From: Lachnospiraceae bacterium V9D3004
Lineage (GTDB): Bacteria > Bacillota > Clostridia > Lachnospirales > Lachnospiraceae
DNA: 64,000 bases
Assembly (NCBI GenBank): GCA_000621985.1
Contig: JHWW01000010.1
Span: forward strand, 1 to 64,000
Reading direction: 5' to 3'
Shown: piece by piece, positions 1,898 to 23,115 of the stretch
Layout of the letters: every line of letters begins with the position of its first letter
How positions within the stretch are numbered: position 1 is the first letter of the stretch
Notes under the pieces: generated by a model
The model's database searches: none
Told to the model about the DNA's origin: nothing
What the model saw: the letters and a program-made list of their open reading frames with translations, nothing else
Program-made: the position numbers and the translations under genes

Positions 1898-2458
1898 ATG
1901 AGTGATGAGGAGATTATCAAGCTTTTTTTCGATAGGGATCAGCAGGCGATCAAAGAGACCGCTGATCAGTATGGGAGGAAACTGTATTCACTCTCCTTCA
2001 AAGTAGTTTATGATTCAGGAACCGCTGAGGAGTGTGTAAATGATACCTATCTTCGAGCTTGGGACAATATCCCGCCGGATAATCCGGCATCGCATTTTTA
2101 TCCGTATCTGGCCCGGATCGTGCGCTGTTTTTCTATAGACCGATACAGGCATATGCATGCTAAGAAACGCGGCGCAGATATCGTTTATCTGACTGATGAG
2201 ATTGATTCATGCCTGATGAGCAAGGGGCCCGGAGAGGGAATCGTCGACCGTCTCGCATTTTCAGAGTCAATGAACAGGTTTTTAGAAGGATTAAAAAAAG
2301 ACCAGCGCTGTGTGTTTATGCGTCGCTACTGGTACATGGAAGATATTAAGGATATTGCAAAGTTCTACGGTTATTCGGAAAGCAAAGTCAAGTCGATGCT
2401 GATGAGGATACGTAATCGGCTGAGAGAGCATCTGCTGATGGATGGCATTTTGGTATGA
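1898..2458 (+). CDS. ECF-type RNA polymerase sigma factor
   Basis: 186 residues with the two-domain ECF layout. Region 2 (about residues 5-85) contains AEECVNDTYLRAWDNIPP, the segment that contacts core enzyme and the -10 element. Region 4 (about 125-180) contains CVFMRRYWYMEDIKDIAKFY followed by SESKVKSMLMRIRNRLREHL, a helix-turn-helix for the -35 element. AGGAG lies 8 nt before the ATG. The next gene encodes a small two-helix membrane protein that is a likely anti-sigma partner. The signal and regulon are unknown. Sigma proteins of this type with a following 'FLDGLSDVD' membrane gene are common in gut Clostridia (established family pattern from memory). Confidence 0.9.
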   Translation: MSDEEIIKLFFDRDQQAIKETADQYGRKLYSLSFKVVYDSGTAEECVNDTYLRAWDNIPPDNPASHFYPYLARIVRCFSIDRYRHMHAKKRGADIVYLTDEIDSCLMSKGPGEGIVDRLAFSESMNRFLEGLKKDQRCVFMRRYWYMEDIKDIAKFYGYSESKVKSMLMRIRNRLREHLLMDGILV

Positions 2459-2525
2459 TGAAATTGCAGGAGCTTGATTATCTGCATGTGAATTCCGGCT
2501 ACGAACTATGATAAGGAGGTGTCAC

Positions 2526-2867
2526 ATGAACGGACTTGATTTTTTGGATGGATTAAGTGATGTGGATATGAAATATATTGCGGAGGCTGATGAAAGACCG
2601 GCCGGACACGTAGTTAAGTGGCAGTATTTTATGTCACTGGCGGCCTGCTTTGCTCTGACTGTCTTCTCCGGCGTGATGCTGATATTCGGAAATGGTTCCG
2701 ATACTTCATCTGTTGAAACAACTGATGGTCTGGCGAGCATGATCAGCTCTTCGACCGGCCTTCTGTGGATGACCGCCACCGCAGGTGTTCTCGGAATGAT
2801 CGTTTCAGTGGTGCTGATCATCAAGTGTCCGAATGGACAGCCTGAAAAAGGAAAAAATTATCAATGA
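2526..2867 (+). CDS. Small membrane protein, putative anti-sigma partner of the ECF factor
   Basis: 113 residues. A cytosolic N-terminus (MNGLDFLDGLSDVDMKYIAEAD) is followed by two predicted membrane helices, at about residues 36-56 and 78-100, joined by a Ser/Thr-rich outer loop, then a short polar tail. The ATG at 2526 has a near-perfect AAGGAGGTG 5-6 nt upstream; an earlier ATG at 2508 lacks one. It follows the sigma gene by 67 nt on the same strand. The 'FLDGL.D.D.KYI.EA' opening is typical of short anti-sigma-like proteins next to ECF genes in Clostridia. The loop is much shorter than a sensory domain. Anti-sigma activity is inferred from position and layout only. Confidence 0.6.
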   Translation: MNGLDFLDGLSDVDMKYIAEADERPAGHVVKWQYFMSLAACFALTVFSGVMLIFGNGSDTSSVETTDGLASMISSSTGLLWMTATAGVLGMIVSVVLIIKCPNGQPEKGKNYQ

Positions 2868-5044: not shown

Positions 5045-8000
5045 TTATCTGTTAAGCCACATCTCACCGTATATGGTTTCATCTGATGTATTACCGCCGG
5101 TTATCTCTCCTGCGCCTTTTACACTTCCGTCTTCACGCTGGGCGAACATGTAGATACGGTTCTCCATTGAATTATAATCATCATCGAACCAGACTGCTCC
5201 GTCATTCAATTCCGCTGCTGTCCTGTTGTCATCACATAATACTCTCTCCCATGGCAGATTGTTGGATAGACCTGAGCTTGATACTCCGTCCTGATACGGA
5301 ACGCGGTCTCCCAATGCAAAGGCGATCCTGGTTAACGGTGTCTTAAAGTAATCATTCGGCATGGATGACATCATCTTCCTTGTATCCGTTCCCTGGTTCT
5401 TATTGTACTTCTTGGCGTTGTATATAGTTGTGTAATACATATATATCTTCGGGCCGCTTGTTCCTGCGTTCAGATCAGTATCACTCACCGGCTTATAATA
5501 TATCTGGTTCAGCTCGGTAACAAATCCATCGGGATTATAAGGCTTATCCACGGTACATATTATGTCATAGATCGCCTCCTGAAGCTGGTTCTCTTTCTCC
5601 GTCTCCTTAGCTTCCTTCGTAGCCTTCATACGGATCTTATCCTCGTCAAGGCTGTAACCTTTGTAACCCATATATATATAGTTCCCGCCGGCATTCTCAT
5701 TCAGGTTCATATCGATGAATTCAGTACAATCCTGTTCAAGGAGCTTTGTAAGTGCTTTTTTCTTCATTATATCAGAACCGATGAATAATTTATTAAAGTA
5801 GGTCTTCTGGTCATGCTCATATTCGGCATGGATATAATTGTAAAGCGAGGTGTCGCCGTAGGGCTTCGAGGCATCATCTCCACCCTTGCCATCGGGCCTG
5901 TCGACTACAAGTGTAGTTGACTGACCGCTTATGAATAAATCTTCGGTGACAGTTATATCAGTAATGGGTTTGCCCGGTGTGGCACCCGTATTATAAGTGT
6001 AGTACAGATAATATTTGCTTCCGCCTGCTAAAGTTATCGGCGTAGTATTACTTGCGCAGTAATAGGTCATGGAGTCCACCTTCATTTCCTCAGGTACGGC
6101 TTTTTTATCTGTTTTGTACAGAACCATTCCGGTAATGGCTTCATCCTCCTTGTCGGTTCTTGATACACTTATATAGGCAGCCGGACTCTTCTTGCCTTTC
6201 TCAGGTTCCGTAGCTGCAATTTCCTTTTTAGTCTGATTTCTGTACCACGCATCCTCCTTTGGTACCGATGCATTAACCGGGATTACTTCATCACTTGCCT
6301 GGGAAGTGGCGATAAGAAGCGCCTGGTAATCCACCATCTTATCTACCTCATAGAGCATATCTTCGTTATCATATCCTGATTCTTCCCTTGTATATGCGCC
6401 TACAAATACACGGGAGATATACTTCTTCTTCACAGCCGGTCTTTTCTTATAGATATATAATTCTTTGCCGGCGTCATAATGATCGTTAGAATCATTGGTC
6501 CACTCCGGATATGATATGTTGAAAGCCTTGGTATTGTAAGGTCTCTTAAGCTCCTGGATAGATGAGAACTCACCTGTTGCGGCATTTCCTCCAAGAGTCT
6601 TCTCTCCGGACATATCCGCTACTACCTTGCCATTGATCAGCTCACCATCATGTCTTTTACTGCTGATAACAATATCATCAAGGGTCAATGGTTCTTTGTC
6701 CGATATGTAACCGCTCATGAATATACCCGTCGGAAGAAATGGCATCTTATCATATCCGTAATCGTAATCACCCATAAGAGTAGTTGTATAGGTTTTCGTT
6801 CTTAGTTCTTCATGGCGTCCACTAAGACCGTTAGTGCTTATATATGCATTCTCGGGAAGCAGTCCTCTTCCATTAAACGAAATATCCTTATCCAAGAAAT
6901 TGGTATATGACTGCAAAGGTCTCTGGAATACTATACTTACTGCGGCGTAGCTTTGCTGTTCGGCAGCTTCCCCAAGATTCTTCTTGCTGTACTTCGTTGT
7001 TTTATTTACCGTATAAGGAAGCTCGGACTTATATAATGTTCCCTGATAAGCCTGCACATCATATATGGCACGGTAAGGATTGTAACTCCACAGATAGCCT
7101 ATATGAAGATACTTCTGGTTGCTCTCATTCAGGTAACCTTTATAGTAATAAGATTGTGCAAGATTAATATCACCGAGCAGATTTGAATTCGGAACAGATT
7201 TCATCTTGTCTACAAGCTCGGTGAAAGAAGATTTGACTGCAGCGACTTTCGACCAGGTAGCATGTTCGGAATCAGTACCGAAGGTAAAGTATATACCCGA
7301 CAGATATTTCGTACCTTCCGTATATTTCTCTGTGGGTTCATAGTACATATATCCGTCTGTCTCATTCCATGAATACTCATCTTGTGATGCATATAATGTA
7401 TACTGGTAAGGCGCAAGATATCTTCCGTCACCCCAATTGTTTAACTTGTCATCGGAGGATAGTCTTGTTGTATTAAAGTTATAGGGAAGTCCGCCGAAGG
7501 TTGTGACAGGAACCCATCCTGCTTCCGCCTGATCATGACTTGAGAGCATATGAATCTTTCCTGCAGGAATAGGTGTTCCGCTTTTCTCATTCTTGCTGTA
7601 ATATAACCCGTCCAGATTCGAAGGAAACTTCTCATCTTCTTTATCACTATCCGCCGGGTAACCCAGTGTTCCGGCGCAGGCATAATTAACACACCCGAAA
7701 GTCAATGAAGAGCCGTGCTCGAAAGATGCAACACGGATATCTCTTATGGCATTGGAGGGATCGGTTGTAATCTTATAACCGATATAGGTATACTGAGTAT
7801 CTTTATCACCATTTGTAATACTTTGGTATCCTTCTTTACGATTTCTGGCATCCGGCGTAAGGTTCTGATCCCATACCTGGAATCCCTTCTGGATTATCTT
7901 AGCCTTTGCCTGAGACTCTGTTCTTGCCGAACGTACTATCATATCCGCATAGTATTTTGTTACAGCAGATGTACCGGATTCTGAAGTGTTAACAGCCGAG

Positions 8001-10078
8001 GCTGCGGATTTTGATTTAAGAGAATCCTCTGTAGTATAAAATATATATATTCCGTTCACATCATCATATTCCATGCCCGAATTACAATTACCGGGACTTA
8101 TCTCACCGAAGAAGGTTAAGGATTCCATTCCGTTCCGGTCTGCCGAATCGCCATAAACCACCTTAAATGGATCTCCGGTTTTCGGAACTACCAAAGGACT
8201 TCCGATCCTGGTGTCAGTTGTCTGATATAAGGAAACCCAGCCTCTATGAGCCCTGTAACCGTCCAGATCACCTTTTGAGCCGATATTATTCAGGGTGACC
8301 TTATACTTAACCTGAACAGTCTTATCCATTGTGTCCATAACATCGATCAGATAATCGGGAATTGTTGAATATTCGCTATCGGCGGCCTCCTTCGCCAATT
8401 TGACGAAATAGGTGATAAGCTTATATAAACCGTATCCGATGAGAACAATAAGATCTACGACCAATACATAGGACATGATCGTACTGACTGTAGTTCCGAT
8501 TGCCACTAATGAAGAACACACACTGGTAATACCGGTTACTACCGTTGTTAACCCAAGCTTTGTAAGCACGAATCCCACACCTGAAAGAACTAACGGCAGT
8601 CCATAGGAACCTAGTATGAAGGATACGACAAATACAGTACCGCTTACAATTCCCCACCATTTGTTTACTTCTTCTACGATATCATTTGCTTTATCAAGAT
8701 CAGTAGGTGTTTCCGCGTCCTCAAGGAGCTTTCCTGCCGAATTCTGACGGATCGCATCACTTGTGTAGGCAAAAGTCTTAGTGAAGAGTTCCTCATTTGA
8801 ACCACTCCATATGGAGAAATCATCTTCACCGAGAAGCTTGTATACTTTCCTTCTTGCTTCTTCCAGTGTTTCATCATAGAGGTCGGTTTTCTCATTTTCT
8901 TCAAGGGAACCAATTACAGACATCAGACCTCCGACGCCGATCATCTGACGTTCCGCATCGGTAAAGGAGTCAACTACCGGATACAACTGCCTGTAATCAA
9001 CTTCTTCACTTGTCAGTTTGCCGATGTTGACAAACCATTCTCCAAGGGGCATATCGTCATTGATCTTATAATTATTAAGCTGCTCATAACATCCCATGTA
9101 GAGAAGACTTGTATCCTTCTTATCAAGTTTTTCGGTATCATCCATTGCTTCCTCAATATCGGAACCCTCCTCCTGAAGTTCATCGATCCTGTCTTCATCA
9201 AAATTACACTCGGCATTCTCATACAGAGCAGTAAAGTCCTGAAGCTTCTTGAACAGAGTCTTGGCGCTGTCCATGTAATTCTGATCCATTGAATCCAGTT
9301 CCTCTTCGGTAAGATTGTCCTCTTCCACCTGTTCCCACAACGGATTTTCTATGACTTTTTGCGCCCAGTTCACCGTGATCGCATTACCGTCTTCATCTTC
9401 TTCATTATTGTAAGGAGCCATACCGGCATACAGGAAGGATATTATGGAATTGACAATACCGCTGCTTGCGGTAGTAAGCAGCTTGGCATAGAAATCCCTG
9501 TCCTGATCGTCGCCCATACCTATAATATAATCTCCAAGGCCCTTTTCGCCTGCTTCGGGAACGTATGCCATATTAAGACCTTCATAGGCTTCTATTGCCT
9601 TTGGGCTTCCTTCATGGAAATAATTGGTAAATTCAACAGCTGCGGAACAAAGTGCATCTGCAGCAGCATAATTAGACTGCTTATACTTTTCTTCAAGCTT
9701 CTTGTAATCCCGTATCTCGTATCCTTTGTCCATGGCAAGAAGACCAAGCTTACGGACAGCTTTTGCTTTGTTATCCGTAGTCTTATAGCCGATACATACA
9801 TACTGACCTTTTCTTGTTCCTTCGTTAAGATTGCTCTTAACAGCAGTATAGCCTTCGGCTTCACATTGACTTACGGCATTACTCTCGTTAACTCCGTAGA
9901 AGACTTTGATATCTTCGATATAAGACGCGAAGCCGTCTTCGCCTGCAGCAAGCAGTCGGGTATTCTGAACCCAACCCGCCGGATCAAGTAATGAAAAATT
10001 AAAACACAGAACCCAGGCTATCATTATTCTTAATATTCTATGCAATGTTTTTTTACGAAATACTTTCCTGCGTCTCAT
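5045..10078 (-). CDS. Giant surface protein with five GYKTT-type modules
   Basis: 1677 residues; function not recognised. A basic N-terminus and hydrophobic segment (MIAWVLCFNFSLL) form a signal peptide. I see a diverged module repeated about five times, near residues 52-125, 708-780, 925-1010, 1218-1320 and 1425-1505. Its pattern is an aromatic start, an 'L/EGY..id.NLN' middle, a 'yi.iGYKtt' strand and an 'aI.di.v' end. An acidic helical region, RQLYPVVDSFTDAERQMIG and then an 80-residue hydrophobic block (about 473-555, several membrane helices) follow the first copy. After that come STIPDYLID and GDLDGYRAHRGWVSLY, the same order as in the paralogs at 16762-21713. It has no C-terminal helix. 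The ATG overlaps the previous stop (ATGA) behind GGAGG. It is the last gene of the operon. Confidence 0.8.
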   Translation of the reverse strand: MRRRKVFRKKTLHRILRIMIAWVLCFNFSLLDPAGWVQNTRLLAAGEDGFASYIEDIKVFYGVNESNAVSQCEAEGYTAVKSNLNEGTRKGQYVCIGYKTTDNKAKAVRKLGLLAMDKGYEIRDYKKLEEKYKQSNYAAADALCSAAVEFTNYFHEGSPKAIEAYEGLNMAYVPEAGEKGLGDYIIGMGDDQDRDFYAKLLTTASSGIVNSIISFLYAGMAPYNNEEDEDGNAITVNWAQKVIENPLWEQVEEDNLTEEELDSMDQNYMDSAKTLFKKLQDFTALYENAECNFDEDRIDELQEEGSDIEEAMDDTEKLDKKDTSLLYMGCYEQLNNYKINDDMPLGEWFVNIGKLTSEEVDYRQLYPVVDSFTDAERQMIGVGGLMSVIGSLEENEKTDLYDETLEEARRKVYKLLGEDDFSIWSGSNEELFTKTFAYTSDAIRQNSAGKLLEDAETPTDLDKANDIVEEVNKWWGIVSGTVFVVSFILGSYGLPLVLSGVGFVLTKLGLTTVVTGITSVCSSLVAIGTTVSTIMSYVLVVDLIVLIGYGLYKLITYFVKLAKEAADSEYSTIPDYLIDVMDTMDKTVQVKYKVTLNNIGSKGDLDGYRAHRGWVSLYQTTDTRIGSPLVVPKTGDPFKVVYGDSADRNGMESLTFFGEISPGNCNSGMEYDDVNGIYIFYTTEDSLKSKSAASAVNTSESGTSAVTKYYADMIVRSARTESQAKAKIIQKGFQVWDQNLTPDARNRKEGYQSITNGDKDTQYTYIGYKITTDPSNAIRDIRVASFEHGSSLTFGCVNYACAGTLGYPADSDKEDEKFPSNLDGLYYSKNEKSGTPIPAGKIHMLSSHDQAEAGWVPVTTFGGLPYNFNTTRLSSDDKLNNWGDGRYLAPYQYTLYASQDEYSWNETDGYMYYEPTEKYTEGTKYLSGIYFTFGTDSEHATWSKVAAVKSSFTELVDKMKSVPNSNLLGDINLAQSYYYKGYLNESNQKYLHIGYLWSYNPYRAIYDVQAYQGTLYKSELPYTVNKTTKYSKKNLGEAAEQQSYAAVSIVFQRPLQSYTNFLDKDISFNGRGLLPENAYISTNGLSGRHEELRTKTYTTTLMGDYDYGYDKMPFLPTGIFMSGYISDKEPLTLDDIVISSKRHDGELINGKVVADMSGEKTLGGNAATGEFSSIQELKRPYNTKAFNISYPEWTNDSNDHYDAGKELYIYKKRPAVKKKYISRVFVGAYTREESGYDNEDMLYEVDKMVDYQALLIATSQASDEVIPVNASVPKEDAWYRNQTKKEIAATEPEKGKKSPAAYISVSRTDKEDEAITGMVLYKTDKKAVPEEMKVDSMTYYCASNTTPITLAGGSKYYLYYTYNTGATPGKPITDITVTEDLFISGQSTTLVVDRPDGKGGDDASKPYGDTSLYNYIHAEYEHDQKTYFNKLFIGSDIMKKKALTKLLEQDCTEFIDMNLNENAGGNYIYMGYKGYSLDEDKIRMKATKEAKETEKENQLQEAIYDIICTVDKPYNPDGFVTELNQIYYKPVSDTDLNAGTSGPKIYMYYTTIYNAKKYNKNQGTDTRKMMSSMPNDYFKTPLTRIAFALGDRVPYQDGVSSSGLSNNLPWERVLCDDNRTAAELNDGAVWFDDDYNSMENRIYMFAQREDGSVKGAGEITGGNTSDETIYGEMWLNR

Positions 10079-12372
10079 ACCTGAACCCTCCTCTTTCGTA
10101 TTGTTATTGATGCCGTTATAATTACGGCGCTTATTATTGAAAACAAAATAACTAATTTTATATTACCATCGGATATAAGCGATGCCGACACCGACAAGGT
10201 GGTCTTTTTCTTCACTTTTTCCTTAAGTCCGACGGAACCTTTCGCCGGATGAAAATACTTCAGATGGTATTCACTTATATCATAACCCAGCCGTACTTCA
10301 TCATCATCCGTGGAACCAATTCCTATATAGGAACCGGATGTAAGTCCCACATCAATGACTCTGGCTGTAGAAGAACTGCCATCCTCAAGACACAGATCAT
10401 CACCATCTTCGTTTTCGCAGGAATTGTCCTGAATGATCACTTTGCCTTTAAGTGCCAGATCATAACGGGAATCCACATATACGCCTCCCCCGTATCCGGT
10501 GGCGTGATTTTCAGTTATCTCTGAATCAACAATGGCAACAGCGTCATCACATACTGATACGGCACCGCCGTTATCGTCAGATTCGTTATCCGTAAACACG
10601 CATTTATATATCATGGTCGGTATATGTGCGTCACCGTTATCGCCTACATATATGGCTCCTCCGGCATCTACTGCATGGTTGCCGACAAACTTGCAATTTC
10701 TTGCGGTAAATCGGGTTCCTTTTTTTGATTTGGTATATCTTATGCAGACCGCGCCGCCGTCATTGGTGGCTCTGTTTTCCGTGAATACAACATTATTAAG
10801 TTCAACCACGCATTTTTCAACAGCAATGGCACCGCCGTCGTCTTCAACATAACAGTTCTTGAAGGTGGCATTTTTAATAGACAATGTAGCTGCCCTTGCA
10901 AATATACCGCCTCCGTAGCAGCTGTCGCCGCTGTCAAGTGTATGACAGCTTGATATCATGCCTCCGGTCATGGTAAAGCTGGTTTCTTCCCGTTCATCCA
11001 TGTCCCCTTCTATATACACGGCACCACCATGTTCATTTGTAATACAATCATATATAGTGCCGCCCTTCATTGTAACCTTGCCGCCTTCTTCTATATGGAT
11101 TCCGCCAGCCGTGTCATTTCCTGCGCCTCCGGTGATGACTCCGCCTTTAATTCCGTCATAACCTGCGCTTTCAGGATTGGAATCCTTTATCTCAAGATTA
11201 CACTTTCCTTCCAGGTATATAACACTGCCATCATCTTCAGGTTCGTTATTCAGATTTCTTTTGATGTAATGACCGTTAAGATCAAGAACAACATTGTCAC
11301 CTTCGGAAAGTGAAAGCATTCCTCCAAGATCACAGTCAGCGCCGAGAGTAAGAACAGCCTTTGACGAAGACGAGGATTTGGAAGTTGAATACAACCACGC
11401 GGTTGTTATATCAGCAAAATCCTTCTCAGCCTTTAAAGCTCCGGAAGAATTATATACCTCCACCGTATGAACTTTATTATTCTGGACCTTTTCAACATTT
11501 TTAATGACTTTTACTTCCGAATCGTCATCAGCTTCGCTGATCACATATTTATCATCCTCAGATTTGAATGTGAAGTAATAATTTGCAGGAAGAGAATTAT
11601 TATCACCATATCCTGTAGTTACTACTTCTACGATCTCAGGCATTGAGAATACGATACGGGCTTTTTTATTGAACTTTTCAGTGACTTCCATTACTTTGAA
11701 GCTTTCAAAATATATTCCGTCATTGTCAGTATCAGCCGCATAATTATTCTTAATGCTTATGCGTCCGCCGGCGAAGATGATCCTTCCGCCATTACTATGT
11801 ATTCCTCCGCCGGTAGTATCGGCAGAGTTATCATTGATCTTAGCATTGTTCATTGTAAGAACCGCTTTATCTTCAAGATACAGACCACCTCCTGCTGCTG
11901 CTTCGTTCATGGATACGGATACCTGCTTAAGTGTTAGTTCAGCCTTACTGCTTACATATATTCCGCCGCCGTTTCCCGTATTCATTCCACCTGTAACCGA
12001 GCCTCCTCCTTCTTCAGAGGAGTCAACCAGTGTAAGCTTTGCTTTATTCTCAAGGAATAATGCATATCCGTTATCCGCTCTCTCATCAAGTCCCCTGTTA
12101 AGATCATAACCGTTAAGGTCTATGTTGATCATAACTCCCTCAGGGATAATAAGAGCGCCTTCTTCCTCAGTCGGATACAGATCCGTCGTAAGCCTGTATA
12201 CGATATCTTTTTCAGACGTCTCATTGATCAGATTCTGAAGATCAGTCCAGGTGCCGACCTCTGTCACTTCAAGATCAGCTGATGCGATCGTACCCCCTGA
12301 TAACACTCCGGTTACCGAAGCTGCCAGTGACAATATTAAGACAGGAATTATAAGCCTGATTTTCTTGAACAT
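10075..12372 (-). CDS. Secreted parallel beta-helix protein with C-terminal membrane tail
   Basis: 765 residues. A signal peptide (about 1-32, ending near IASADLEV) is followed by two beta-helix blocks rich in short repeats such as GNGGGIYVSS, AGGGLYLED, EHGGAVYIEG, DAGGAIYVGD and YGGGVYVDS. These are the GGAI(Y)-type turns of Pmp-like and right-handed parallel beta-helix folds used in adhesins. Each block opens with a 'DLNGYDLNRG / DLNGHYIKRN' segment, suggesting internal duplication. The C-terminus has a Lys-rich stretch, the box SASLISDGN, one membrane helix and a basic tail (RKRRVQV). That ending matches other genes of this operon. A GAGGTGG site precedes the ATG. An adhesive or matrix role is inference. 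Confidence 0.85.
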   Translation of the reverse strand: MFKKIRLIIPVLILSLAASVTGVLSGGTIASADLEVTEVGTWTDLQNLINETSEKDIVYRLTTDLYPTEEEGALIIPEGVMINIDLNGYDLNRGLDERADNGYALFLENKAKLTLVDSSEEGGGSVTGGMNTGNGGGIYVSSKAELTLKQVSVSMNEAAAGGGLYLEDKAVLTMNNAKINDNSADTTGGGIHSNGGRIIFAGGRISIKNNYAADTDNDGIYFESFKVMEVTEKFNKKARIVFSMPEIVEVVTTGYGDNNSLPANYYFTFKSEDDKYVISEADDDSEVKVIKNVEKVQNNKVHTVEVYNSSGALKAEKDFADITTAWLYSTSKSSSSSKAVLTLGADCDLGGMLSLSEGDNVVLDLNGHYIKRNLNNEPEDDGSVIYLEGKCNLEIKDSNPESAGYDGIKGGVITGGAGNDTAGGIHIEEGGKVTMKGGTIYDCITNEHGGAVYIEGDMDEREETSFTMTGGMISSCHTLDSGDSCYGGGIFARAATLSIKNATFKNCYVEDDGGAIAVEKCVVELNNVVFTENRATNDGGAVCIRYTKSKKGTRFTARNCKFVGNHAVDAGGAIYVGDNGDAHIPTMIYKCVFTDNESDDNGGAVSVCDDAVAIVDSEITENHATGYGGGVYVDSRYDLALKGKVIIQDNSCENEDGDDLCLEDGSSSTARVIDVGLTSGSYIGIGSTDDDEVRLGYDISEYHLKYFHPAKGSVGLKEKVKKKTTLSVSASLISDGNIKLVILFSIISAVIITASITIRKRRVQV

Positions 12373-12397
12373 AGCCTTCCACCTCGCTTAATTCTGT

Positions 12398-15391: not shown

Positions 15392-15443
15392 AATAATTCT
15401 CCCTCCAATTATACTTTTTCCCTTTCAATTATATATCCGTAAA

Positions 15444-16715
15444 TTACCTTGATACGGTTGCTGATCTTTTTCGTTTATTTATAAATGTCATAAATATACC
15501 TGTTGCTACGGCACCGGCAATAAAACTTAAAGTCAGATATAATATCATGGATTCGTCGGAAACTATGGATCCCGTAGTCTCTATATCAGCAAACTTGACG
15601 CTTTCTTTTGCGGCTTCGTTATTATCGGTTTTATAAGCCTCTTCATCCTGCTTATAATATATACGCAGTTCATGATTTGTAGAAAATATCAGCTTCTGGT
15701 CATGAAGATTATAGGCATTTTTTTCTCCGAACATGTGAATACCGGTTGAATAACCATCAGGAACTGAAGATGAATCATTTCCAAGCTTGACCAATAATGA
15801 ATCCGCAAGTATCGGCGTTGAGCGTTCATATTTCACAGTATACAGAGCCAGCCATTGTTTCCCTGTTACATTTCACGGCACTGTAATAAGCCGTATCATT
15901 CCTGTAAAATTCTTTTTCACCTTTTTCATTTATCTTTGTTATATCTGTTTCCTCAACCATATATTTTGGTATCGGAGAAAAGTCCACGTCATAACTGTTG
16001 GATGAATCAATAATTGATACTGTTATTGTTGCTATAATGGCAGCCAGTCCACCAAGACCTATTGCCACAATATTACAGGTTGTAAGACTTCCGGGTTCAT
16101 TTCCTGCCTGCAGAGCTCTCTGGCGTAAAGCATCATTTGTCAGACCTACGGTTCCCGGTTCAAATATCTCACGATTAACACCTTCATATACTGAAGCAAC
16201 CGGTATATCTTTTAATTCTTTCATTCTATTTTCAAGTTCCAGAATACTGTTTAATCCGGCGTCAATCAGTTCCTGCATTGTCAAAAAATCAAGTCCTGCG
16301 ATCTGACCTTTTGAAAGAGACTCAACCATAGGGTATAATTTTCTGATGTCGTTTCCTTTAAAATTCTTCGCTGGTTGAGCAAAGAATTCACGCATATTTT
16401 CATCATCGGTTTCCCTTTCTTCAAGCTCCATGCTTACAGCTATTCCGATAAAATCCTCCGTCTGATCGAATGTTTCTTTCTGGAGTTCGCCCGTATCCTC
16501 GATAAGCTCATCCTGTTCATCAGAAGTCATTGAAGTGATATCCTGTTCAATATTTTCATTCATTTTATCAGTTATCTCTTCAACATTTTCTTCGACTGCA
16601 TCATTCATATCTTCATAATTAGCAGCAATGCCTGTAAATGAATTCCATTTTTCCAGAATTATCTTTGCTTCATCATTATATTTTTTATCAAGCATTTTAT
16701 CGATCTTTTTTTCAT
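15444..16715 (-). pseudogene. Third, decayed paralog of the three-helix surface proteins
   Basis: This is a remnant of a gene like its two upstream neighbours. An intact start (AGGGAG then ATG AAA AAA at 16715) now runs out of frame after 18 codons. The paralogous frame resumes at KKIDKMLDKKYND, which corresponds to about residue 300 of the neighbours, so the signal peptide, first module and helical part are deleted. A second deletion of roughly 30 codons between AVKCNR and GKQWLALY also shifts the frame. It removes the DLNG segment seen in the paralogs and splits the gene near 15830. The last part still encodes the module through IHMFGEKNAYNL, TGSIVSDES, a membrane helix and KRKRS. Both partial frames could be translated, but neither makes a complete protein. 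Confidence 0.85.
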
Positions 16716-16761
16716 GTAAGTCTCTCCCTATTTATATATACATCATTGTAAATAATCTTAT

Positions 16762-19227
16762 TTATTTAGTTATTTCATTCTTCTTTCTGCGTCCGAAGAT
16801 AAAAGTGCATATCCAGACCGTAAATCCTCCGGCTGCGAACGCAAGTACAAGTTTCATAAAATTAGAACTGTCTGAAACAATTGAACCTGTATCTTCTAAT
16901 TTTGCATCTTTGTTACCGGTTTTATTATCTGCCTCGTCATCTGCCTTGGCATCCTGATCATCATCTGATTTTTTATTAACTTCCGTATCCTGCTTGAAGT
17001 AAATACGAATGGCTTCCGGTTCATTGTGAAGCAGTTTTTTGTTCTGAAGATTATAAGCATTCTTTTCTCCAAACATATGTATACCTGTTTTGTAGCCATC
17101 AGGTACATTCGAAGAGTCATCCCCTACCTTAGGAAGTAATGAATCTGCAAGAATAGGTGTAGAGTCTGATTTTTTTACTGTATAGAGAGCAAGCCATTCC
17201 TTTCCGACATCTCCGTTCAGATCTCCCCTGTCACCCACTTCATCTAAACGTTTTTTATGTAATTCTTTATACTTTGCGTCATTCAGGGATCTTCTGTTAC
17301 ATTCAACAGCTTTATAATAAGCGGTCTCATTCCTGTAGAATTCTTTCTCACCTTTTTCATTGTAACGGGTAATATCTACTTCATCTACCATATATTTCGG
17401 GATAGGAACGAAATCAGTTTCATAAACCGCCATCTCATCTAAAAAATGTGAAACAACCGTTGCAATGATCATGGCAACACAGGCCACAGCAAATGCAATA
17501 GCTACTGCTTTAGCTATTCCGGCATATTTGTAATACTTTGACGGTTGTAATCCATTACCTGATGTAATGCTTTCGCTTCTTGCCACAGCCTCTGATATAC
17601 TGCCTTCACGTTCAAGAACTTCTTCCATCGCAAAGTCGGATTCATAAAAAATATTCATAGCTTTTGTAGTAAACGATTCGTATTTTCCATACGCTATAAA
17701 ACCGCTTATTCCTAAAGTTGCTGTAACTCCAATCATGATAATGGTTCTGCTGCTTATTGTGGTTGTTGAATTCCTTTCCGCTTCCGCATTAGCCTGAAGA
17801 CGCAGTGAATCACTTGTAAGTCCTACAGCTCCTTTTTCATAGAGCTCTCTGTTAACTCCCTCATATATTGAACAGGGCTCCATATCTTTATACTCATCTT
17901 TCTCTATGTTGCTTACATTATTGAAGCCTGCATCTATAAGCTCCTGTAGAGTTACAAAATCAAGTCCTGCGATCTGTCCTTTGGAAAGGGACGCAACGAG
18001 GGGATACAGCTTCCTTATATTATCTCCCTTATATTCAGTGGAAGGTTTACTGAATATTTCAAGGAATTCTCCATCATCATTTTCCTTATCCGCCATCTGG
18101 TCGCATACAGCAACGCCAATTGCCGTCTCAGCCATCATTACAGTATCAGACTGTATATCTTCAAATTCATGAAGGTAATCCACCTTTTCATCAATATCCA
18201 TGTTTTCAGTTTCTTTACCTGATAAGTCATCTATTTTTTCACCCAGTTCCTCGTCCTGATTCATTAATTCATCATGAACATCCTCATGGCTTTCAGCGAT
18301 CTCAGCAAAATCATCCCACATCTCAAGGATTTTTTTTGCTGCATCATTATATTTTTTATCCATTTTTTTATATATATCGCTTTTATCCGCACCGGGATAT
18401 TTATCTTCATATTCTTCCATAAGTTTATCAAAACTCGTCTCTTCGTATCTGTCGATCCATGTATCATCCGAAGAGTCAGCAGCTTTTACAAGCAGTTTTT
18501 CAACCATTGATATTCCTGTCAGATTACCCTGCAAAAACAATGTAACTGCATCAACATGATTCTTCTTTTCATCATCAGACAGAGCATTATATGCCTTATC
18601 ACCCATCTCATATTTTGTTTCATTTAAGAAAAGATCGCCCAGAGGCTTTCCTCCTGTATCGTCATCTGTGAACTTATTGAGCATATCGTGAACTATACTT
18701 GCTTTCTTATAATTGATCGTATTCTTCGGCTTATTATAGTTTTCACGATATTCCTTTATTGTTGCCATGAAACTGTCAACAAAAGGTTTGATCTTGGTGT
18801 CCATATAATTCTCTAACAGAACGTTATAGTCTTCTACACTGTAACCGCCTTTCATATTCATAACAGCAATATCGGTGACAGCATCATTCGGATCTGACGT
18901 TGTCTTATATCCGAGATATACTACCATATAATCAGGATAACCTTTTGCAAGCCACGATTGCGGAGTAGATCCGCTGTTAAGGTCTAATAGCTTATCATCA
19001 TATTTAAGAATGGTGTACCCCTCTGATTCAAGGTATTGCTTCGCTTCATCTGACGTATCTCCCATACCAAGCCTTATATCACTTATATAAAGCTTCTGAC
19101 CGGATTGTGCGGAATCTGCCGCGCCTGCCTTTTTCGTAACAGGCGCTAATGCAGTAGTAACGGTTATTGCAGCCGTCAAGACTCCCGCAATTATTTGTTT
19201 TATTACTTTTTTCATCGTTTTGTTCAT
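16762..19227 (-). CDS. GYKTT-module surface protein with three membrane helices (paralog 2)
   Basis: 821 residues; no known family recognised. Order: signal peptide (about 1-36, ending AGAA); one GYKTT module (VVYLGYKTTSDPNDAVTDIAV); MNMKGGYS; an acidic helical region with FTDDDTGG; RKLYPLVASLSKGQIAGLD; YEGVNRELYEKGAVGLTSD; a membrane helix near 494; a second near 572; then PIPKYMVDEVDIT, NEKGEKEFYRN, GDLNG and WLALY, and a domain ending in IHMFGEKNAYNLQNKK. Residues about 785-821 are DTGSIVSDSS, one helix and FGRRKKNEITK. GGGGAGGAAC precedes the ATG. It is about 50 percent identical by eye over long stretches to the next gene upstream. Both faces of the membrane are probably exposed. Its role is unknown. 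Confidence 0.85.
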   Translation of the reverse strand: MNKTMKKVIKQIIAGVLTAAITVTTALAPVTKKAGAADSAQSGQKLYISDIRLGMGDTSDEAKQYLESEGYTILKYDDKLLDLNSGSTPQSWLAKGYPDYMVVYLGYKTTSDPNDAVTDIAVMNMKGGYSVEDYNVLLENYMDTKIKPFVDSFMATIKEYRENYNKPKNTINYKKASIVHDMLNKFTDDDTGGKPLGDLFLNETKYEMGDKAYNALSDDEKKNHVDAVTLFLQGNLTGISMVEKLLVKAADSSDDTWIDRYEETSFDKLMEEYEDKYPGADKSDIYKKMDKKYNDAAKKILEMWDDFAEIAESHEDVHDELMNQDEELGEKIDDLSGKETENMDIDEKVDYLHEFEDIQSDTVMMAETAIGVAVCDQMADKENDDGEFLEIFSKPSTEYKGDNIRKLYPLVASLSKGQIAGLDFVTLQELIDAGFNNVSNIEKDEYKDMEPCSIYEGVNRELYEKGAVGLTSDSLRLQANAEAERNSTTTISSRTIIMIGVTATLGISGFIAYGKYESFTTKAMNIFYESDFAMEEVLEREGSISEAVARSESITSGNGLQPSKYYKYAGIAKAVAIAFAVACVAMIIATVVSHFLDEMAVYETDFVPIPKYMVDEVDITRYNEKGEKEFYRNETAYYKAVECNRRSLNDAKYKELHKKRLDEVGDRGDLNGDVGKEWLALYTVKKSDSTPILADSLLPKVGDDSSNVPDGYKTGIHMFGEKNAYNLQNKKLLHNEPEAIRIYFKQDTEVNKKSDDDQDAKADDEADNKTGNKDAKLEDTGSIVSDSSNFMKLVLAFAAGGFTVWICTFIFGRRKKNEITK

Positions 19228-19274
19228 AACCTGTTCCTCCCCTCATTTTTTCCTTTCACTATTATATCCGCAAA

Positions 19275-21713
19275 CTATTTTGCCGGGGTTGCAGATTTTT
19301 TTCTGCGTCCAAGAATAACCGTGCATACCCATGCCAATATTCCTCCGGCTGCAAATGCAATTACAAGATACATAAAATCAGTACTGCCTGAAACAAGTGA
19401 ACCTGTATCTTCGATTTTGGTTGTCTTATCTTCTTTTGGAACACCGCTATCCTCCGCAGGTTTCCACACCTCTTTATCCTGCTTAAAATATATACGGAGA
19501 TCATCAGGTTCTTCCCTGAGCAATTTTTTATTTTGAAGATTGTACGCGTTCTTCTCACCAAACATATGGATTCCCGTCGTGTATCCGTCAGGTACATTGG
19601 AAGAACCATCACCTGTCATAACCAAAAGTGAGTCAGCCAGGATCGGTGTGGATTTCTCATACTTTACAGCGTAAAGAGCCAGCCACTGTTTTCCGTCATA
19701 TCCGTTCAGATCCCCGTGGTCACCTATTTCACCAATACGTTTATTGGTTATGTCATCATTTTCACTTATACCATATCTGATACAGTCAACAACCTGATAA
19801 TACGCGGTCTCATTACGATAAAACTCTTTTTCACCCTTTTCATTAATCCTGGTGATATCCGTTTCATCTACTATGTATTTGGGAATAGGTGAATAATCAA
19901 CAGCCTTGTGTTCTTCAACAAACCCGACGATTGACAGTACGAGTCCTGTTATCGCGACCAGAACCACCGCCATTGTCACAGTAATCTTTAAAGCTTTCCA
20001 TAACCTTGCAGCGGAAAATTTATTTGCGGAAGCCGTAGCATAATCAGCTGAAGAACTATAATAGACTCCATCATTATAGTACATAAAGTCTATTTTGTGA
20101 GCCTTTTCCAATTTGAGCGCTTCTTCAGCCCTACTTGCAAAATATTCTGCTCTCTCCGTCAGACTTTCTATTTTTCTGTTGATAGGCTCAAGGCCCTTCA
20201 TTAACCCGTATGATCCCCCTACTGCAGTGATAACAAATATAGCGGTCCCGACATACCTCATAACGGTAAATGAACTCACGTCGTTGTCTTTCTCTAAAGC
20301 ATCCAGTCTCAGGGCGTCATTGGTCATAGCCACTGCCCCAGGTTCATAGACCTCACGATTTACACCATCGTAGATGGAAACCTTTTCGACAGCTTTGATC
20401 TGTTCCTCATCCAGATCTTTTATGTTGTTCAGTCCGGCATCGACAAGCTCCTGCAATGTCAGAAAATCGATTCCCGCTATCTGTCCATCCGAAAGAGAAG
20501 CAACCATCGGGTAGAGTTTCCTTATTTCATCTCCTTTGAAATTATCTGAAGGCTGCGCAAAAAACTCACGCAGATTTCCATCGTCATTTTCTCTTTCATT
20601 CAATGCTTCACTTACTTTGACAGCTATCACTTCTTCTGCCTGATCTATCGTCTCAGTCTGAACATCATCCATTTCGTTGATGGTTTCGACGAATTCCTCG
20701 TCATCCATTTCCGTAAGATCCCCTTCGTACGCTTCTTCGAATCTTTCCGTTGATTCTTCTGCGTTATTTATAAGTTCATCCTGCTTATCCTCATAATCAT
20801 CCGCTATCAGCGCAAAGTCATCCCAATACGTCAATAATGCCTTTGCCGTATCATTATATTTTTTGTCCATCTTTTTGAGAATTTCATTTTTGTCCGCGTC
20901 GGGATATTTGTCCTCAAATTCTTCAATCAGCTTGTCGTAACCGGTTTCCTCTAACCTGTCGATCCATGTGCTCGTCGAGCTGTCTGCCGCCCTGACAAGG
21001 AGCTTTTCCATCATCGTTATACCGGTCATATTTCCTTGCATAAGGAGTGTGACGATATCCATATGTTTTTTCTTTTCCTCGTCCGAAAGCGCCTCGTACG
21101 CTTTGTCACCCAGCTCATATTTTGTCTTATTGAGAAGAAGATCTCCGATCGGTGCACCGCCTGTATCATCATCCGTGAACTTATTCAGGATCTTTCGAAC
21201 CATGTTAGCCCTTTTATAGTTGATGGAATTTTTTGACTTTTTGTAGTTTGAGCGGTACTCCTCAATCGTGTCTATGAATTCCTCAACGAAGGGTTTGATC
21301 TTTGTTTCCATCGTTTTTTTGAGTAGATATTCATAATCACTGAAATTGTATCCGCCCTTCATATTCATGACCGCGAGATCCGTGATACCTTCATTCGGAT
21401 CAGTCGTCGTTTTGTATCCAAGCGCAACTGCTTTCTGATTGGATTTGGATGTACTCTTTGCATTGAGATCCACAGGCTCGCCATCCTTTTGCAATATCGA
21501 GTAGCCTTCATTCTGGAGTCCCATCACCGCATCCTTCAATTCATATCCTATGCCAAGTTTCACTTCCTTGACATAAAGTTTGGAATCTTCGGATGCCGCA
21601 TCATCACCGGATGCAGATGCATACTTACCAAAGTTTGCTAAAGGTCCGGAGACCATAAGTGCAGTGACTAAAAAGACTGCAATGATTTTTTTTGTGATTT
21701 CCGTAATCTTCAT
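19275..21713 (-). CDS. GYKTT-module surface protein with three membrane helices (paralog 1)
   Basis: 812 residues, the same domain order as the following gene. It has a signal peptide (about 1-35); AVALGYKTTTDPNEGITDLAV; MNMKGGYN; a long acidic helical region; RKLYPMVASLSDGQIAGID; YDGVNREVYEPGAVAMTND; helices near 484 and 581; PIPKYIVDETDIT; NEKGEKEFYRN; GDLNG and WLALY; and IHMFGEKNAYNLQNKK. The end is DTGSLVSGST, a helix and LGRRKKSATPAK. Between its two inner helices lies a charged stretch (INRKIESLTERAEYFASRAEEA) that could form a coiled coil. GGGAGGGAAT precedes the ATG. The segment identities with the neighbours show recent tandem duplication. Its function is not known; position after a PrsW-like protease suggests that protease may act on it. 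Confidence 0.85.
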   Translation of the reverse strand: MKITEITKKIIAVFLVTALMVSGPLANFGKYASASGDDAASEDSKLYVKEVKLGIGYELKDAVMGLQNEGYSILQKDGEPVDLNAKSTSKSNQKAVALGYKTTTDPNEGITDLAVMNMKGGYNFSDYEYLLKKTMETKIKPFVEEFIDTIEEYRSNYKKSKNSINYKRANMVRKILNKFTDDDTGGAPIGDLLLNKTKYELGDKAYEALSDEEKKKHMDIVTLLMQGNMTGITMMEKLLVRAADSSTSTWIDRLEETGYDKLIEEFEDKYPDADKNEILKKMDKKYNDTAKALLTYWDDFALIADDYEDKQDELINNAEESTERFEEAYEGDLTEMDDEEFVETINEMDDVQTETIDQAEEVIAVKVSEALNERENDDGNLREFFAQPSDNFKGDEIRKLYPMVASLSDGQIAGIDFLTLQELVDAGLNNIKDLDEEQIKAVEKVSIYDGVNREVYEPGAVAMTNDALRLDALEKDNDVSSFTVMRYVGTAIFVITAVGGSYGLMKGLEPINRKIESLTERAEYFASRAEEALKLEKAHKIDFMYYNDGVYYSSSADYATASANKFSAARLWKALKITVTMAVVLVAITGLVLSIVGFVEEHKAVDYSPIPKYIVDETDITRINEKGEKEFYRNETAYYQVVDCIRYGISENDDITNKRIGEIGDHGDLNGYDGKQWLALYAVKYEKSTPILADSLLVMTGDGSSNVPDGYTTGIHMFGEKNAYNLQNKKLLREEPDDLRIYFKQDKEVWKPAEDSGVPKEDKTTKIEDTGSLVSGSTDFMYLVIAFAAGGILAWVCTVILGRRKKSATPAK

Positions 21714-21791
21714 CGGAATTCCCTCCCTTAAAGTTTTTATAATATTAAGGCCTTCACCCTATTATCCGTAAATCATATCATGCTCGTTGCA

Positions 21792-22448
21792 TTATTCGAA
21801 CCATTTTTTAACTCCGTGTGCCAATACCGGAAGAATAATGATAGTTACAATGATTCCGATAGACATAGACACATACCAGTAAACCGAACCGAACTCGAAT
21901 GCATATTCCAGAAGAAATGCCATACAGTTCAATATACATATGGCGTTGTAGGGGCGTATCGACCTTACAATACCATCCTCCACATCCGGAATTATCAGAT
22001 GCTTGATGTGGAAGTACAGCGAATACAGCGGAACCAGTACAGGGATAAGCATCATAAGCATCTCCGCCGTGTTGAATTCATCATATATAGCAAACAGTAT
22101 CAATCCCGCATAGATCGCCACAGGGATAAATGCCGCGATGATACGATATTTTCTGTTTGATTTTGAACCGTCATCACAAAGGGAATCGAGTGCTCCGATG
22201 GATGCGCAGATCAAAAACAGAAACTGTGCAAGCTGCACAAGTGATGAAACCCTAAAGGTTTCCATGTTCATCTTGCTTTTTACAAGAAGCAGATCCAGAA
22301 ATCCATTGAAGAAACGGCAGCCAACCATACATACCACCATCTGGATAAACAACGGTTTTTTCTGTCTGAAATACTTAAGCATTCCGATAAGTGTGACAAC
22401 AAATGCCGCTACTGTGTATATTATCTCAAATACTATCTCTACAGACAT
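21792..22448 (-). CDS. Polytopic membrane protein in the PrsW operon
   Basis: 218 residues with about six or seven hydrophobic segments (for example IIYTVAAFVVTLIGML near the start and SIGIIVTIIILPVLAHGV at the end) separated by short polar loops. I recognise no family motif. Its ribosome-binding site (AAGGAGGTGG) lies inside the last codons of the PrsW-like gene, and only one base separates that stop from this ATG, so translation is coupled. The two proteins may form a complex. It could be a sensor, a scaffold or a protease partner; the sequence does not decide. Confidence 0.8.
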   Translation of the reverse strand: MSVEIVFEIIYTVAAFVVTLIGMLKYFRQKKPLFIQMVVCMVGCRFFNGFLDLLLVKSKMNMETFRVSSLVQLAQFLFLICASIGALDSLCDDGSKSNRKYRIIAAFIPVAIYAGLILFAIYDEFNTAEMLMMLIPVLVPLYSLYFHIKHLIIPDVEDGIVRSIRPYNAICILNCMAFLLEYAFEFGSVYWYVSMSIGIIVTIIILPVLAHGVKKWFE

Positions 22449-22449
22449 T

Positions 22450-23115
22450 TTACGCCACCTCCTTCGCTGCTTCGGAACCCTGTCCCTTGAAGGTCATAGG
22501 CGCAAGCGCAATGTAGGTTGCAAGTGGAAGCACGAACCCCAGATATTTCAGATCTGTCTGTACAAGCGCATTATAGATAGCGTGATAAGCAGCCGCCACG
22601 CTCAATATGGCAAATATACCGGGAACCAGCAGTTTTTTCTGCTTCATTACGATGCTTAAAACTACTCCGACCATCATAGTCGAGACAGAGTGCATCAGAC
22701 CTGAACCGAAGCCCCTTACAAACGCCCACAGATAGTTAGCGCTTTCGGGATCACTAATGACTGCCCTCAAAAGGATAACAATATTTTCCAGCACCGCAAA
22801 ACCTACTCCCAGACCAAAACCACAGGATAACAGCTTATCTCTCTGGCTTGAAAACCTGAATGCGTATACAAGAAGCGGTATCGCTTTCAGCATCTCCTCT
22901 ATTATTGGCGTTGCGGTTGTGGTGATATAATACACATCTGACAGGCCTATCGCCCGGATCACCGCGCCGCTGACTTCGGAAGAAAACAGGCAGATAAACA
23001 GTCCCAATGCCACACTTCCCGTGAGGAGTCTTGACTCTGCCTTCACCGTTATAGTCATCATAAATAACGGGATCATTATACATATAAAACATATGTATTC
23101 AATCGTACTGTCCAT
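22450..23115 (-). CDS. PrsW/Rce1-like intramembrane protease
   Basis: 221 residues, about seven membrane segments. The conserved set of the PrsW (M82) branch of the Abi/CAAX protease superfamily is visible in order: PIIEEMLKAIP (EExxK, about residue 70), GVGFAVLEN (about 105), FVRGFGSGLMHSVST (about 140) and AYHAIYNAL (about 178). In Bacillus, PrsW makes the first cut in the anti-sigma protein RsiW. Here no anti-sigma gene adjoins; instead it opens an operon of membrane-tethered surface proteins with a shared juxtamembrane box, which are candidate substrates (inference). AAAGGGGA precedes the ATG. A sigma-A-like promoter lies about 40 nt upstream. Confidence 0.85.
   Translation of the reverse strand: MDSTIEYICFICIMIPLFMMTITVKAESRLLTGSVALGLFICLFSSEVSGAVIRAIGLSDVYYITTTATPIIEEMLKAIPLLVYAFRFSSQRDKLLSCGFGLGVGFAVLENIVILLRAVISDPESANYLWAFVRGFGSGLMHSVSTMMVGVVLSIVMKQKKLLVPGIFAILSVAAAYHAIYNALVQTDLKYLGFVLPLATYIALAPMTFKGQGSEAAKEVA

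What the first reader, a model, noticed from the sequence alone, without database searches (positions are those of the whole stretch)
5045..23115. Operon linking a PrsW-like intramembrane protease to surface proteins with a shared C-terminal box
Seen: eight genes on one strand, with gaps from a 4-nt overlap to 78 nt. The first encodes a PrsW-like protease with the EExxK, GFAxLEN, MH and HxxxN motifs. Five downstream products end in the same plan: a Ser-rich box (DTGSIVSDSS, DTGSLVSGST, TGSIVSDES, TGSLISDGS, SASLISDGN), one membrane helix and a short basic tail. The proteins before the box are unrelated in fold (GYKTT module proteins versus beta-helices), so the ending behaves like a transferable sorting or cleavage signal. 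Known: PrsW cleaves membrane-tethered substrates near the membrane, and tripartite tails (motif, helix, basic end) mark sortase, rhombosortase or exosortase substrates. Inference: the protease and the polytopic partner (21792-22448) cleave or sort the box-bearing proteins, giving a released or assembled surface structure.
Basis: partly seen in the sequence, partly recalled or inferred. Interest (0 to 1): 0.88.

Follow-up and report, generated by a model that had tools for sequence, protein, structure and literature searches.

The report
Shared tag for a PrsW protease
A gut bacterium appears to mark both a gene-switch inhibitor and several large surface proteins with the same short membrane-edge tag, so that one membrane protease could turn on the surface-protein genes and trim the proteins they make.

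Summary
Confirmed, and bigger than reported. The operon (5045-23115, minus) encodes a PrsW-family protease, a conserved 7-helix partner and secreted proteins with a C-terminal box, helix and basic tail. One of the five tails sits on a broken gene copy, and the 1677-aa protein has none. In 397 family genomes, 27 of the 29 listed tail-profile matches that cover the box lie in genomes with this PrsW branch (28 of 397). The box is roughly T-[AG]-S-[VIL]-F-[SG]-D-G; it is not LPxTG and has no Cys.

An ECF sigma gene (1898-2458) is followed by a two-helix anti-sigma-like protein (2508-2867) with the same box before its second helix. Sister PrsW operons pair the box with a different anti-sigma type. 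A promoter defined upstream of the sigma gene in three genomes recurs exactly before two tail-bearing genes here, and with one mismatch before a third.

Best explanation: the box is a transferable recognition signal for PrsW plus partner. Cutting the anti-sigma frees sigma, which switches on surface proteins that carry the same tag and are then clipped by the same protease. Cleavage is untested. New variant of a known kind.

The parts
22450..23115 (-). PrsW-family intramembrane protease, 221 aa (EExxK, GFAVLEN, MH, HxxxN)
   Evidence: Pfam PF13367 E 2.1e-19; motif columns invariant in an alignment of four; in 69 related PrsW ORFs EExxK in 69, GF[AG]xxEN in 65, a loose Hxxx[NF] pattern in 69
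21792..22448 (-). Conserved 7-helix membrane partner, 218 aa, no Pfam or NCBIfam family
   Evidence: No family hit; 51 of 69 PrsW loci have a partner-profile match; AlphaFold model with seven long helices, mean pLDDT 91.8
21762..21791 (-). Predicted ECF-sigma promoter TGCAAC-N17-CGGATAA, 48 nt before GYKTT1
   Evidence: Exact match
19275..21713 (-). GYKTT1: secreted 812-aa protein, tail DTGSLVSGST + helix + RRKK
19264..19293 (-). Predicted ECF-sigma promoter TGCAAC-N17-CGGATAT, 36 nt before GYKTT2
   Evidence: Exact match
16762..19227 (-). GYKTT2: secreted 821-aa protein, tail DTGSIVSDSS + helix + RRKK
   Evidence: 54% identical to GYKTT1
15444..16695 (-). Remains of a third GYKTT gene: two ORFs (15826-16695, 15444-15836) in different frames, 5' part missing; tail TTGSIVSDES kept
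   Evidence: tail
15433..15462 (-). Promoter-like site AGCAAC-N17-CGGATAT (one mismatch), 41 nt before beta-helix 1
12398..15391 (-). Beta-helix protein 1, 997 aa, tail VTGSLISDGS + helix + KKK
   Evidence: Pfam Beta_helix and Flg_new above cut-off
10075..12372 (-). Beta-helix-like protein 2 (Chlamydia PMP repeats), 765 aa, tail VSASLISDGN + helix + RKRR
   Evidence: Pfam Chlam_PMP above cut-off
5045..10078 (-). 1677-aa secreted GYKTT-module protein without a tail; similar-sized untailed relatives in E. oxidoreducens and RUI364
1839..1868 (+). Promoter TGCAAC-N17-CGGTAAA, 29 nt before the sigma gene (with P6B14 and RUI097, the defining set)
1898..2458 (+). ECF sigma factor, 186 aa
   Evidence: TIGR02937 60.8 bits, cut-off 42.9; Sigma70_r2 and r4_2 above cut-off
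2508..2867 (+). Anti-sigma-like protein, 119 aa: N-terminal segment, helix 1, short loop with box DGLASMISSST, helix 2
   Evidence: Follows the sigma gene; weak N-terminal matches to ORFs directly downstream of sigma homologues in L201, L202, L203, L206; box

Best explanation
A membrane-proximal box (about T-[AG]-S-[VIL]-F/V/I-[SG]-D-G, a few residues before a membrane helix) is the recognition and probable cleavage signal of a PrsW-family protease that works with a conserved 7-helix partner. Steps: (1) the ECF sigma factor is held by a two-helix anti-sigma whose outer loop carries the box (inferred from gene order and weak homology); (2) on a signal, perhaps sensed by the 7-helix partner, PrsW cuts at the box (inferred); (3) a RasP-type protease, present in the genome, finishes the anti-sigma and frees sigma (inferred from B. 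subtilis RsiW); (4) sigma transcribes its own gene and tail-bearing surface-protein genes (promoter matches shown, activity inferred); (5) those proteins arrive at the membrane carrying the same box and are cut by the same PrsW, so they are released, or moved on, only while the protease is active, and they may compete with the anti-sigma for it, giving feedback (inferred).
For: Box on GYKTT, beta-helix, lectin and hydrolase proteins near PrsW. The same box in two-helix proteins of two N-terminal types that directly follow a sigma gene, in 12 of 13 cases within about 1.3 kb of PrsW (20 kb in the window): strict box in 9 of 13 loops (1.6 expected); a relaxed pattern, chosen after seeing them, in 13 of 13 (3.8 expected). 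A tail profile built without any anti-sigma finds the G248 anti-sigma and two-helix proteins of G039, G290 and G355, three of the four next to PrsW. Genomes with box-spanning matches: 8 of 10 PrsW-positive against 28 of 397 overall; leaving out the four that supplied tails, 4 of 6 (chance 1.5e-4). The promoter set by three sigma genes recurs exactly before GYKTT1 and GYKTT2, and before GYKTT1 in RUI097; the genome has 6 exact matches (reversed control 0), of which 3, the sigma site included, are in this locus. The PrsW tree separates a sigma group from a surface group (one branch, 100/99); the window trio lies in the surface group yet has a sigma gene with a different anti-sigma type. M50 protease in the genome.
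Against: No cleavage data exist. 24 of 68 PrsW rows have neither a sigma gene nor a strict box protein detected nearby, though some contigs are short and some neighbours have looser boxes. Of 23 sigma-like ORFs in the loci, 8 are not followed by a two-helix protein. Two box-spanning matches lie in genomes without this PrsW (G027, G257); the G027 one (KASLLSKNGS plus helix plus basic end) looks genuine. Loosening the cut from profile position 8 to 10 adds four matches, all in PrsW-negative genomes. The anti-sigma role rests on gene order and weak N-terminal similarity (E 2e-5 to 4e-3). The promoter is degenerate (2-3 mismatches) in P6B14, not seen before GYKTT2 in either relative, and absent before beta-helix 2, the 1677-aa gene and the PrsW-partner pair. 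Three of the six exact genome matches lie elsewhere and were not examined.
Confidence: 0.66

Rival explanations
1. The tails are non-canonical sortase signals: a sortase cuts at T-G of the box and links the proteins to the cell wall; PrsW only serves the anti-sigma.
For: Genome has three sortase-domain genes; 10 of 35 tails contain TGS; weak matches at E <= 0.1 to LPXTG_anchor in 7 of 35 tails (best E 4e-4) and to Gram_pos_anchor in 2 of 35 (best E 1.4e-3).
Against: 0 of 35 tails match PxT[GNAS]; 20 of 35 have A-S, not G-S; proteins next to two of this genome's sortase genes end in VPKTG and VPQTG (the third has a neighbour with KNTGYS); none of the three sortase genes is on this contig; box-spanning tail matches track PrsW; anti-sigma-like loops carry the same box.
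Confidence: 0.08
2. The box is a docking site, not a cut site: surface proteins bind PrsW and its partner and hold it inactive, acting as sensors that release the protease onto the anti-sigma when the envelope is disturbed.
For: Shared box between anti-sigma-like and surface proteins; surface genes carry the sigma promoter, as expected for feedback; conserved 7-helix partner of unknown role.
Against: None of the other 45 rows of the surface group has a sigma-like gene within 1.6 kb by two sigma queries, so the box is kept where no anti-sigma is at hand; PrsW relatives are proteases and the catalytic motifs are intact.
Confidence: 0.15
3. Another protease (signal peptidase or rhomboid) cuts at the small residues of the box, and PrsW is merely neighbouring.
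For: A or G before S resembles a small-residue site; signal peptidases act as site-1 proteases on RsiV and RsiP (table passage of PMC10202637; title of PMC8844934).
Against: Signal peptidase is nearly universal (recalled), so it would not explain why the box tracks PrsW. Rhomboids were not searched.
Confidence: 0.07
4. The tails are plain membrane anchors; similarity within an operon reflects duplication.
For: GYKTT copies are paralogues, and their tails are the most alike.
Against: The box recurs on unrelated folds and on anti-sigma-like proteins across many genera, at 39 of 54 against 4.2 expected; helix-only matches occur in most of the 397 genomes, box-spanning ones follow PrsW.
Confidence: 0.04

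Closest known systems
B. subtilis PrsW-RsiW-SigW regulated intramembrane proteolysis (passages of PMC8844934, PMC3498285, PMC5358783)
   Same: PrsW-family site-1 protease, ECF sigma factor, membrane anti-sigma, M50 site-2 protease in the genome
   Different: The anti-sigma has two helices and a short boxed loop (RsiW has one helix); a 7-helix partner travels with PrsW; the same box marks large surface proteins, several under the sigma's predicted promoter
Myxosortase MrtX and MYXO-CTERM (PMC11980579, passages read)
   Same: Glutamate-type intramembrane protease paired with a tripartite C-terminal signal on many surface proteins
   Different: MrtX is CPBP family, not PrsW; its signal has an invariant Cys, absent in the 35 tails tested here; no sigma or anti-sigma link in the passages I read
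Rhombosortase and GlyGly-CTERM (PMC3237569, search listing only)
   Same: Many-to-one pairing of a membrane protease with a C-terminal motif-helix-basic tail
   Different: Serine rhomboid protease and a Gly-rich motif, in Gram-negative bacteria
PrsW-toxin fusions (Zhang et al. 2012, PMC3482391, passages read)
   Same: PrsW proposed to release extracellular proteins
   Different: There PrsW is fused N-terminally to toxins in one chain; here it is a separate enzyme with a portable tag
Sortase and LPXTG
   Same: Motif-helix-basic tail on cell-surface proteins
   Different: Motif not met; the tail tracks PrsW

Membership tests
PrsW family (PF13367) | Profile match above curated cut-off | tested here: met
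   70.3 bits against 23.5
PrsW family (PF13367) | Catalytic motifs EExxK, FAxxEN, HxxxN | tested here: met
   Invariant in A3; patterns anywhere in the ORF: EExxK 69 of 69, GF[AG]xxEN 65 of 69, loose Hxxx[NF] 69 of 69
PrsW family (PF13367) | Proteolytic activity on a membrane-anchored substrate | not testable with these tools
   No experiment
PrsW/ECF-sigma regulated proteolysis circuit | ECF sigma gene followed by a membrane anti-sigma gene | tested here: inconclusive
   Sigma above cut-offs and a two-helix ORF follows; of 8 further genome matches to its profile, 4 are ORFs directly downstream of a homologue of this sigma (L201, L202, L203, L206). Sigma binding not tested
PrsW/ECF-sigma regulated proteolysis circuit | Sigma autoregulates and has a regulon | tested here: inconclusive
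   Shared promoter before sigma and tail genes; transcription not measured
PrsW/ECF-sigma regulated proteolysis circuit | Site-2 (M50) protease in the genome | tested here: met
   C3:160221, 391-aa frame
Sortase substrates (LPXTG type) | LPxTG-like motif before the helix | tested here: not met
   0 of 35 tails match PxT[GNAS]; weak LPXTG_anchor profile matches in 7 of 35
MYXO-CTERM and related Cys-bearing CTERM signals | Invariant Cys in the motif | tested here: not met
   0 of 35 tails have Cys in the first 16 residues
MYXO-CTERM and related Cys-bearing CTERM signals | Partner is a CPBP-family protease | tested here: not met
   The protease next to the tails matches PrsW only in Pfam; CPBP genes elsewhere in the genome were not searched
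Any named C-terminal sorting signal in NCBIfam 20.0 | Clear profile match of the tails | tested here: inconclusive
   Only scattered weak matches; most frequent TIGR01167 in 7 of 35, best E 4e-4; cut-offs are not printed in that table

The most novel reading that the evidence does not exclude
A general protease-addressing code: a PrsW plus 7-helix receptor-like partner recognises a portable box that evolution has added to at least two unrelated anti-sigma families and to many unrelated surface proteins. The same proteolytic event then both switches on surface-protein genes and matures or sheds their products, with surface proteins competing with the anti-sigma as built-in feedback.
Probability: 0.45. 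Interest if true: 0.92.

Novelty: new variant of a known kind. Interest (0 to 1): 0.82.

Why it matters
[quoted passage not shown] what it recognises is not stated in the passages I read. Here sequence alone points to a short tag, shared by anti-sigma-like proteins and surface proteins, that can be transplanted and mutated. It would be a PrsW-type tail-processing system alongside sortase, rhombosortase, archaeosortase and myxosortase, spread in rumen and gut Clostridia including named strains (Eubacterium oxidoreducens DSM 3217, E. xylanophilum ATCC 35991), and would show one protease coupling gene control to processing of the gene products.

Tried and rejected
Sortase reading: tested by motif and by this genome's own sortase neighbours; rejected as the general explanation. 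MYXO-CTERM-like lipidation: no Cys. GYKTT1 fold: model pLDDT 73.3, no PDB match better than E 0.29, no PDB sequence match better than E 0.011. Partner fold: confident 7-helix model, but the best PDB match (bacteriorhodopsin, E 0.1) is not significant, so a receptor-like role stays a guess. The window's type of anti-sigma was not found in E. oxidoreducens (G103) or RUI364 (G011) at E <= 0.01; the tail loci there have a histidine kinase and response regulator, although G011 also has two sister-type PrsW operons on other contigs, one with a box-bearing two-helix protein after a sigma gene (L186, L187). Second PrsW of this genome: no box neighbours seen. Literature searches for a prior report showed none in their listings; most subscription papers are not held. 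The PrsW cut site in RsiW (recalled as between Ala and Ser) could not be confirmed, so I do not use it. Rows left out: 8 of 43 boxed tails (three anti-sigma-like, five others) were not put in the tail profile; PrsW ORFs under 180 aa and duplicates were dropped from the tree; near-copies L137 and L189 were dropped. Names RUI097, RUI364 and E. oxidoreducens for G248, G011 and G103 rest on equal contig lengths.
Full report
WHAT IS THERE. The window is a 64-kb stretch of a 3.4-Mb genome, Lachnospiraceae-type to judge by its relatives; its PrsW is closest to that of Lachnospiraceae bacterium P6B14 (86% identity). On the minus strand lie, in order of transcription: a PrsW-family protease (22450-23115), a 218-aa membrane protein (21792-22448), two GYKTT proteins (19275-21713 and 16762-19227, 54% identical), the two-ORF remains of a third GYKTT gene (15444-16695), two beta-helix-type proteins (12398-15391, 10075-12372) and a 1677-aa secreted GYKTT-module protein (5045-10078). 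Five products end in box, helix and basic tail; the 1677-aa protein does not. In the whole genome a profile of the five tails finds only those five.

RELATIVES. In 397 family genomes a GYKTT profile hits 5 at E <= 1e-5, 4 of them strongly (E <= 1e-10); all four strong ones have this PrsW branch (28 of 397 at E <= 1e-10; chance 2e-5). The fifth, G014 at 8.8e-6, does not. A strong partner match (E < 1e-20) occurs in 8 genomes, all 8 PrsW-positive (chance 2e-10), but four of them supplied the profiles; of 6 further weak matches, 3 are in PrsW-positive genomes. A scan of GTDB genomes with the PrsW alignment gave 47 loci, largely from rumen and gut Clostridia by their titles and including E. oxidoreducens, E. 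xylanophilum, Emergencia timonensis and Blautia schinkii. 51 of 69 PrsW loci examined have a partner-profile match, and many have large secreted proteins that end in the same plan. The other domains of such proteins differ: ricin-type lectin, PETase-like hydrolase, beta-helix, GYKTT.

THE BOX. Across 35 tails the consensus is T-[AG]-S-[VIL]-F-[SG]-D-G, a few residues before the helix. The Ser is invariant because the search pattern demands it; the weight lies in the rest. Of 54 C-terminal helices on the PrsW strand in 45 loci plus the window, 39 carry the box against 4.2 expected by shuffling each segment; of the other 13, 4 against 0.6; in L107-L127, unseen when the pattern was fixed, 12 of 18. 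A tail profile run over 397 genomes matches something at E <= 0.01 in 257, mostly by the helix alone. Twelve of the 29 are, or closely resemble, tails the profile was built from; among genomes that supplied none, 4 of 6 are PrsW-positive (chance 1.5e-4). The two exceptions are G027 and G257; the G027 protein has a believable tail. Starting positions 9 and 10 would add four matches, all in PrsW-negative genomes.

THE MISSED PIECE. At 1898-2458 (plus strand) is an ECF sigma factor, followed at 2508-2867 by a 119-aa protein with two helices and the box (DGLASMISSST) in the loop before helix 2. P6B14 and RUI097 have the same pair divergent from PrsW, about 250 nt away. A profile of the three finds, in 29 genomes, 8 further weak matches (E 2e-5 to 5e-3); 4 of these are ORFs directly downstream of homologues of this sigma factor (L201, L202, L203, L206) and 2 more belong to sister-type loci. 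An anti-sigma role is therefore likely but inferred. The surface-protein tail profile found the RUI097 (G248) anti-sigma by itself.

SISTER OPERONS. More distant PrsW genes in the same family sit in operons of a sigma factor (another subfamily), a two-helix protein of a different N-terminal type (MRTNEER...), a multi-helix protein in the partner's place (a partner-profile match in some) and PrsW, with a further two-helix protein after it in some. Of 23 sigma-like ORFs in the loci, 15 are followed by a two-helix protein; of the 13 distinct ones (near-copies L137 and L189 left out), 9 carry the strict box and 13 a relaxed one chosen after seeing them, against 1.6 and 3.8 expected. Some are nearly letter-identical to surface-protein boxes: NASIFSDNS (L184) against SASIFSDGT (L108). 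In a tree of 68 PrsW proteins the sigma-operon type (20 rows, 18 with sigma) and the surface type (48 rows) are parted by one branch of support 100/99, on which the drawing root falls. The window, P6B14 and RUI097 lie in the surface group and yet have a sigma gene, with a different anti-sigma type carrying the box. The simplest reading is that the box was recruited more than once. 24 of the 68 rows showed neither label; several are contig ends or have looser boxes.

PROMOTERS. From the regions before the sigma gene in three genomes I defined TGCAAC-N17-CGGWWAW. In the window it matches exactly three times: before sigma (29 nt; a defining site), GYKTT1 (48 nt) and GYKTT2 (36 nt); with one mismatch it matches before beta-helix 1 (41 nt). 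In the whole genome there are 6 exact matches and none for the reversed control; a Markov model expects 0.017 per 64 kb. The three matches elsewhere were not examined. RUI097 has it exactly 73 nt before GYKTT1; P6B14 has degraded versions (2 and 3 mismatches) before its beta-helix and GYKTT1 genes; neither has it before GYKTT2, and PrsW and partner lack it. So the sigma factor probably drives its own gene and several tail-bearing genes. The pattern was fixed from the sigma genes alone and then held at the surface genes.

MECHANISM. Shown: the shared box, its association with PrsW, the promoter matches, intact catalytic motifs, and a RasP-type protease in the genome. Inferred: PrsW with its partner cuts at the box; cutting the anti-sigma frees sigma; sigma makes boxed surface proteins; PrsW then clips these, releasing or handing them on; and the two substrate classes compete. 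The anatomy follows the RsiW pathway of B. subtilis (passages of PMC8844934; of PMC3498285; of PMC5358783), extended to a second class of substrates.

KNOWN SYSTEMS. Myxosortase shows that a glutamate-type membrane protease can process a tripartite tail (PMC11980579, passages), but it is CPBP family and needs a Cys that these tails lack. Zhang et al. 2012 proposed that PrsW fused to toxins releases them (PMC3482391, passages). I saw no report of a free PrsW with a portable tail, or of a tag shared with an anti-sigma factor, in the listings (open-licence library only). The protease is a PrsW by the tests made; the tail belongs to no named sorting-signal family that I could confirm. Verdict: new variant of a known kind, with a mechanism that is now directly testable.

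Noticed in passing
window 15444-16695: Broken third GYKTT copy: 5' part absent and two ORFs in different frames, yet the boxed tail is kept.
   Followed up: partly
window 5045-10078: 1677-aa GYKTT-module protein without a boxed tail; similar-sized relatives in E. oxidoreducens and RUI364 also lack it.
   Followed up: partly
window 24208-26078: Response regulator with an N-terminal HTH and a histidine kinase beside the operon; in E. oxidoreducens and RUI364 a kinase and regulator pair follows PrsW directly.
   Followed up: partly
window 3045-4241: Looks like a STAS domain fused to a kinase-like domain (by eye); STAS-like and SpoIIE-phosphatase-like genes (by eye) also lie near related PrsW loci (L120, L109, L116, L030), suggesting a partner-switching link.
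   Followed up: no
window 23164-23709: Short TTG-start ORF upstream of PrsW, by eye a fragment of an acyltransferase or condensation-type enzyme.
   Followed up: no
window 2-592: By eye an IS110-type transposase at the window edge.
   Followed up: no
L019 6294-7067 (G000 C4): Second PrsW of this genome has no boxed neighbours that I could see in 13 kb.
   Followed up: yes
L143, L177-L180 (G248 C166, C92, C89, C66, C22): RUI097 encodes over a dozen further large proteins with a C-terminal helix and basic end, many with the box, on several contigs: a family expansion.
   Followed up: partly
L132 1085-7090: A 2001-aa surface protein next to a sister sigma-PrsW operon ends in a sortase-like SPQTGDNSN tail, perhaps the older anchoring mode.
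   Followed up: no
L181 4661-6016 (G027): 451-aa protein with a boxed tail (KASLLSKNGS) in a genome without a detected PrsW of this branch.
   Followed up: partly
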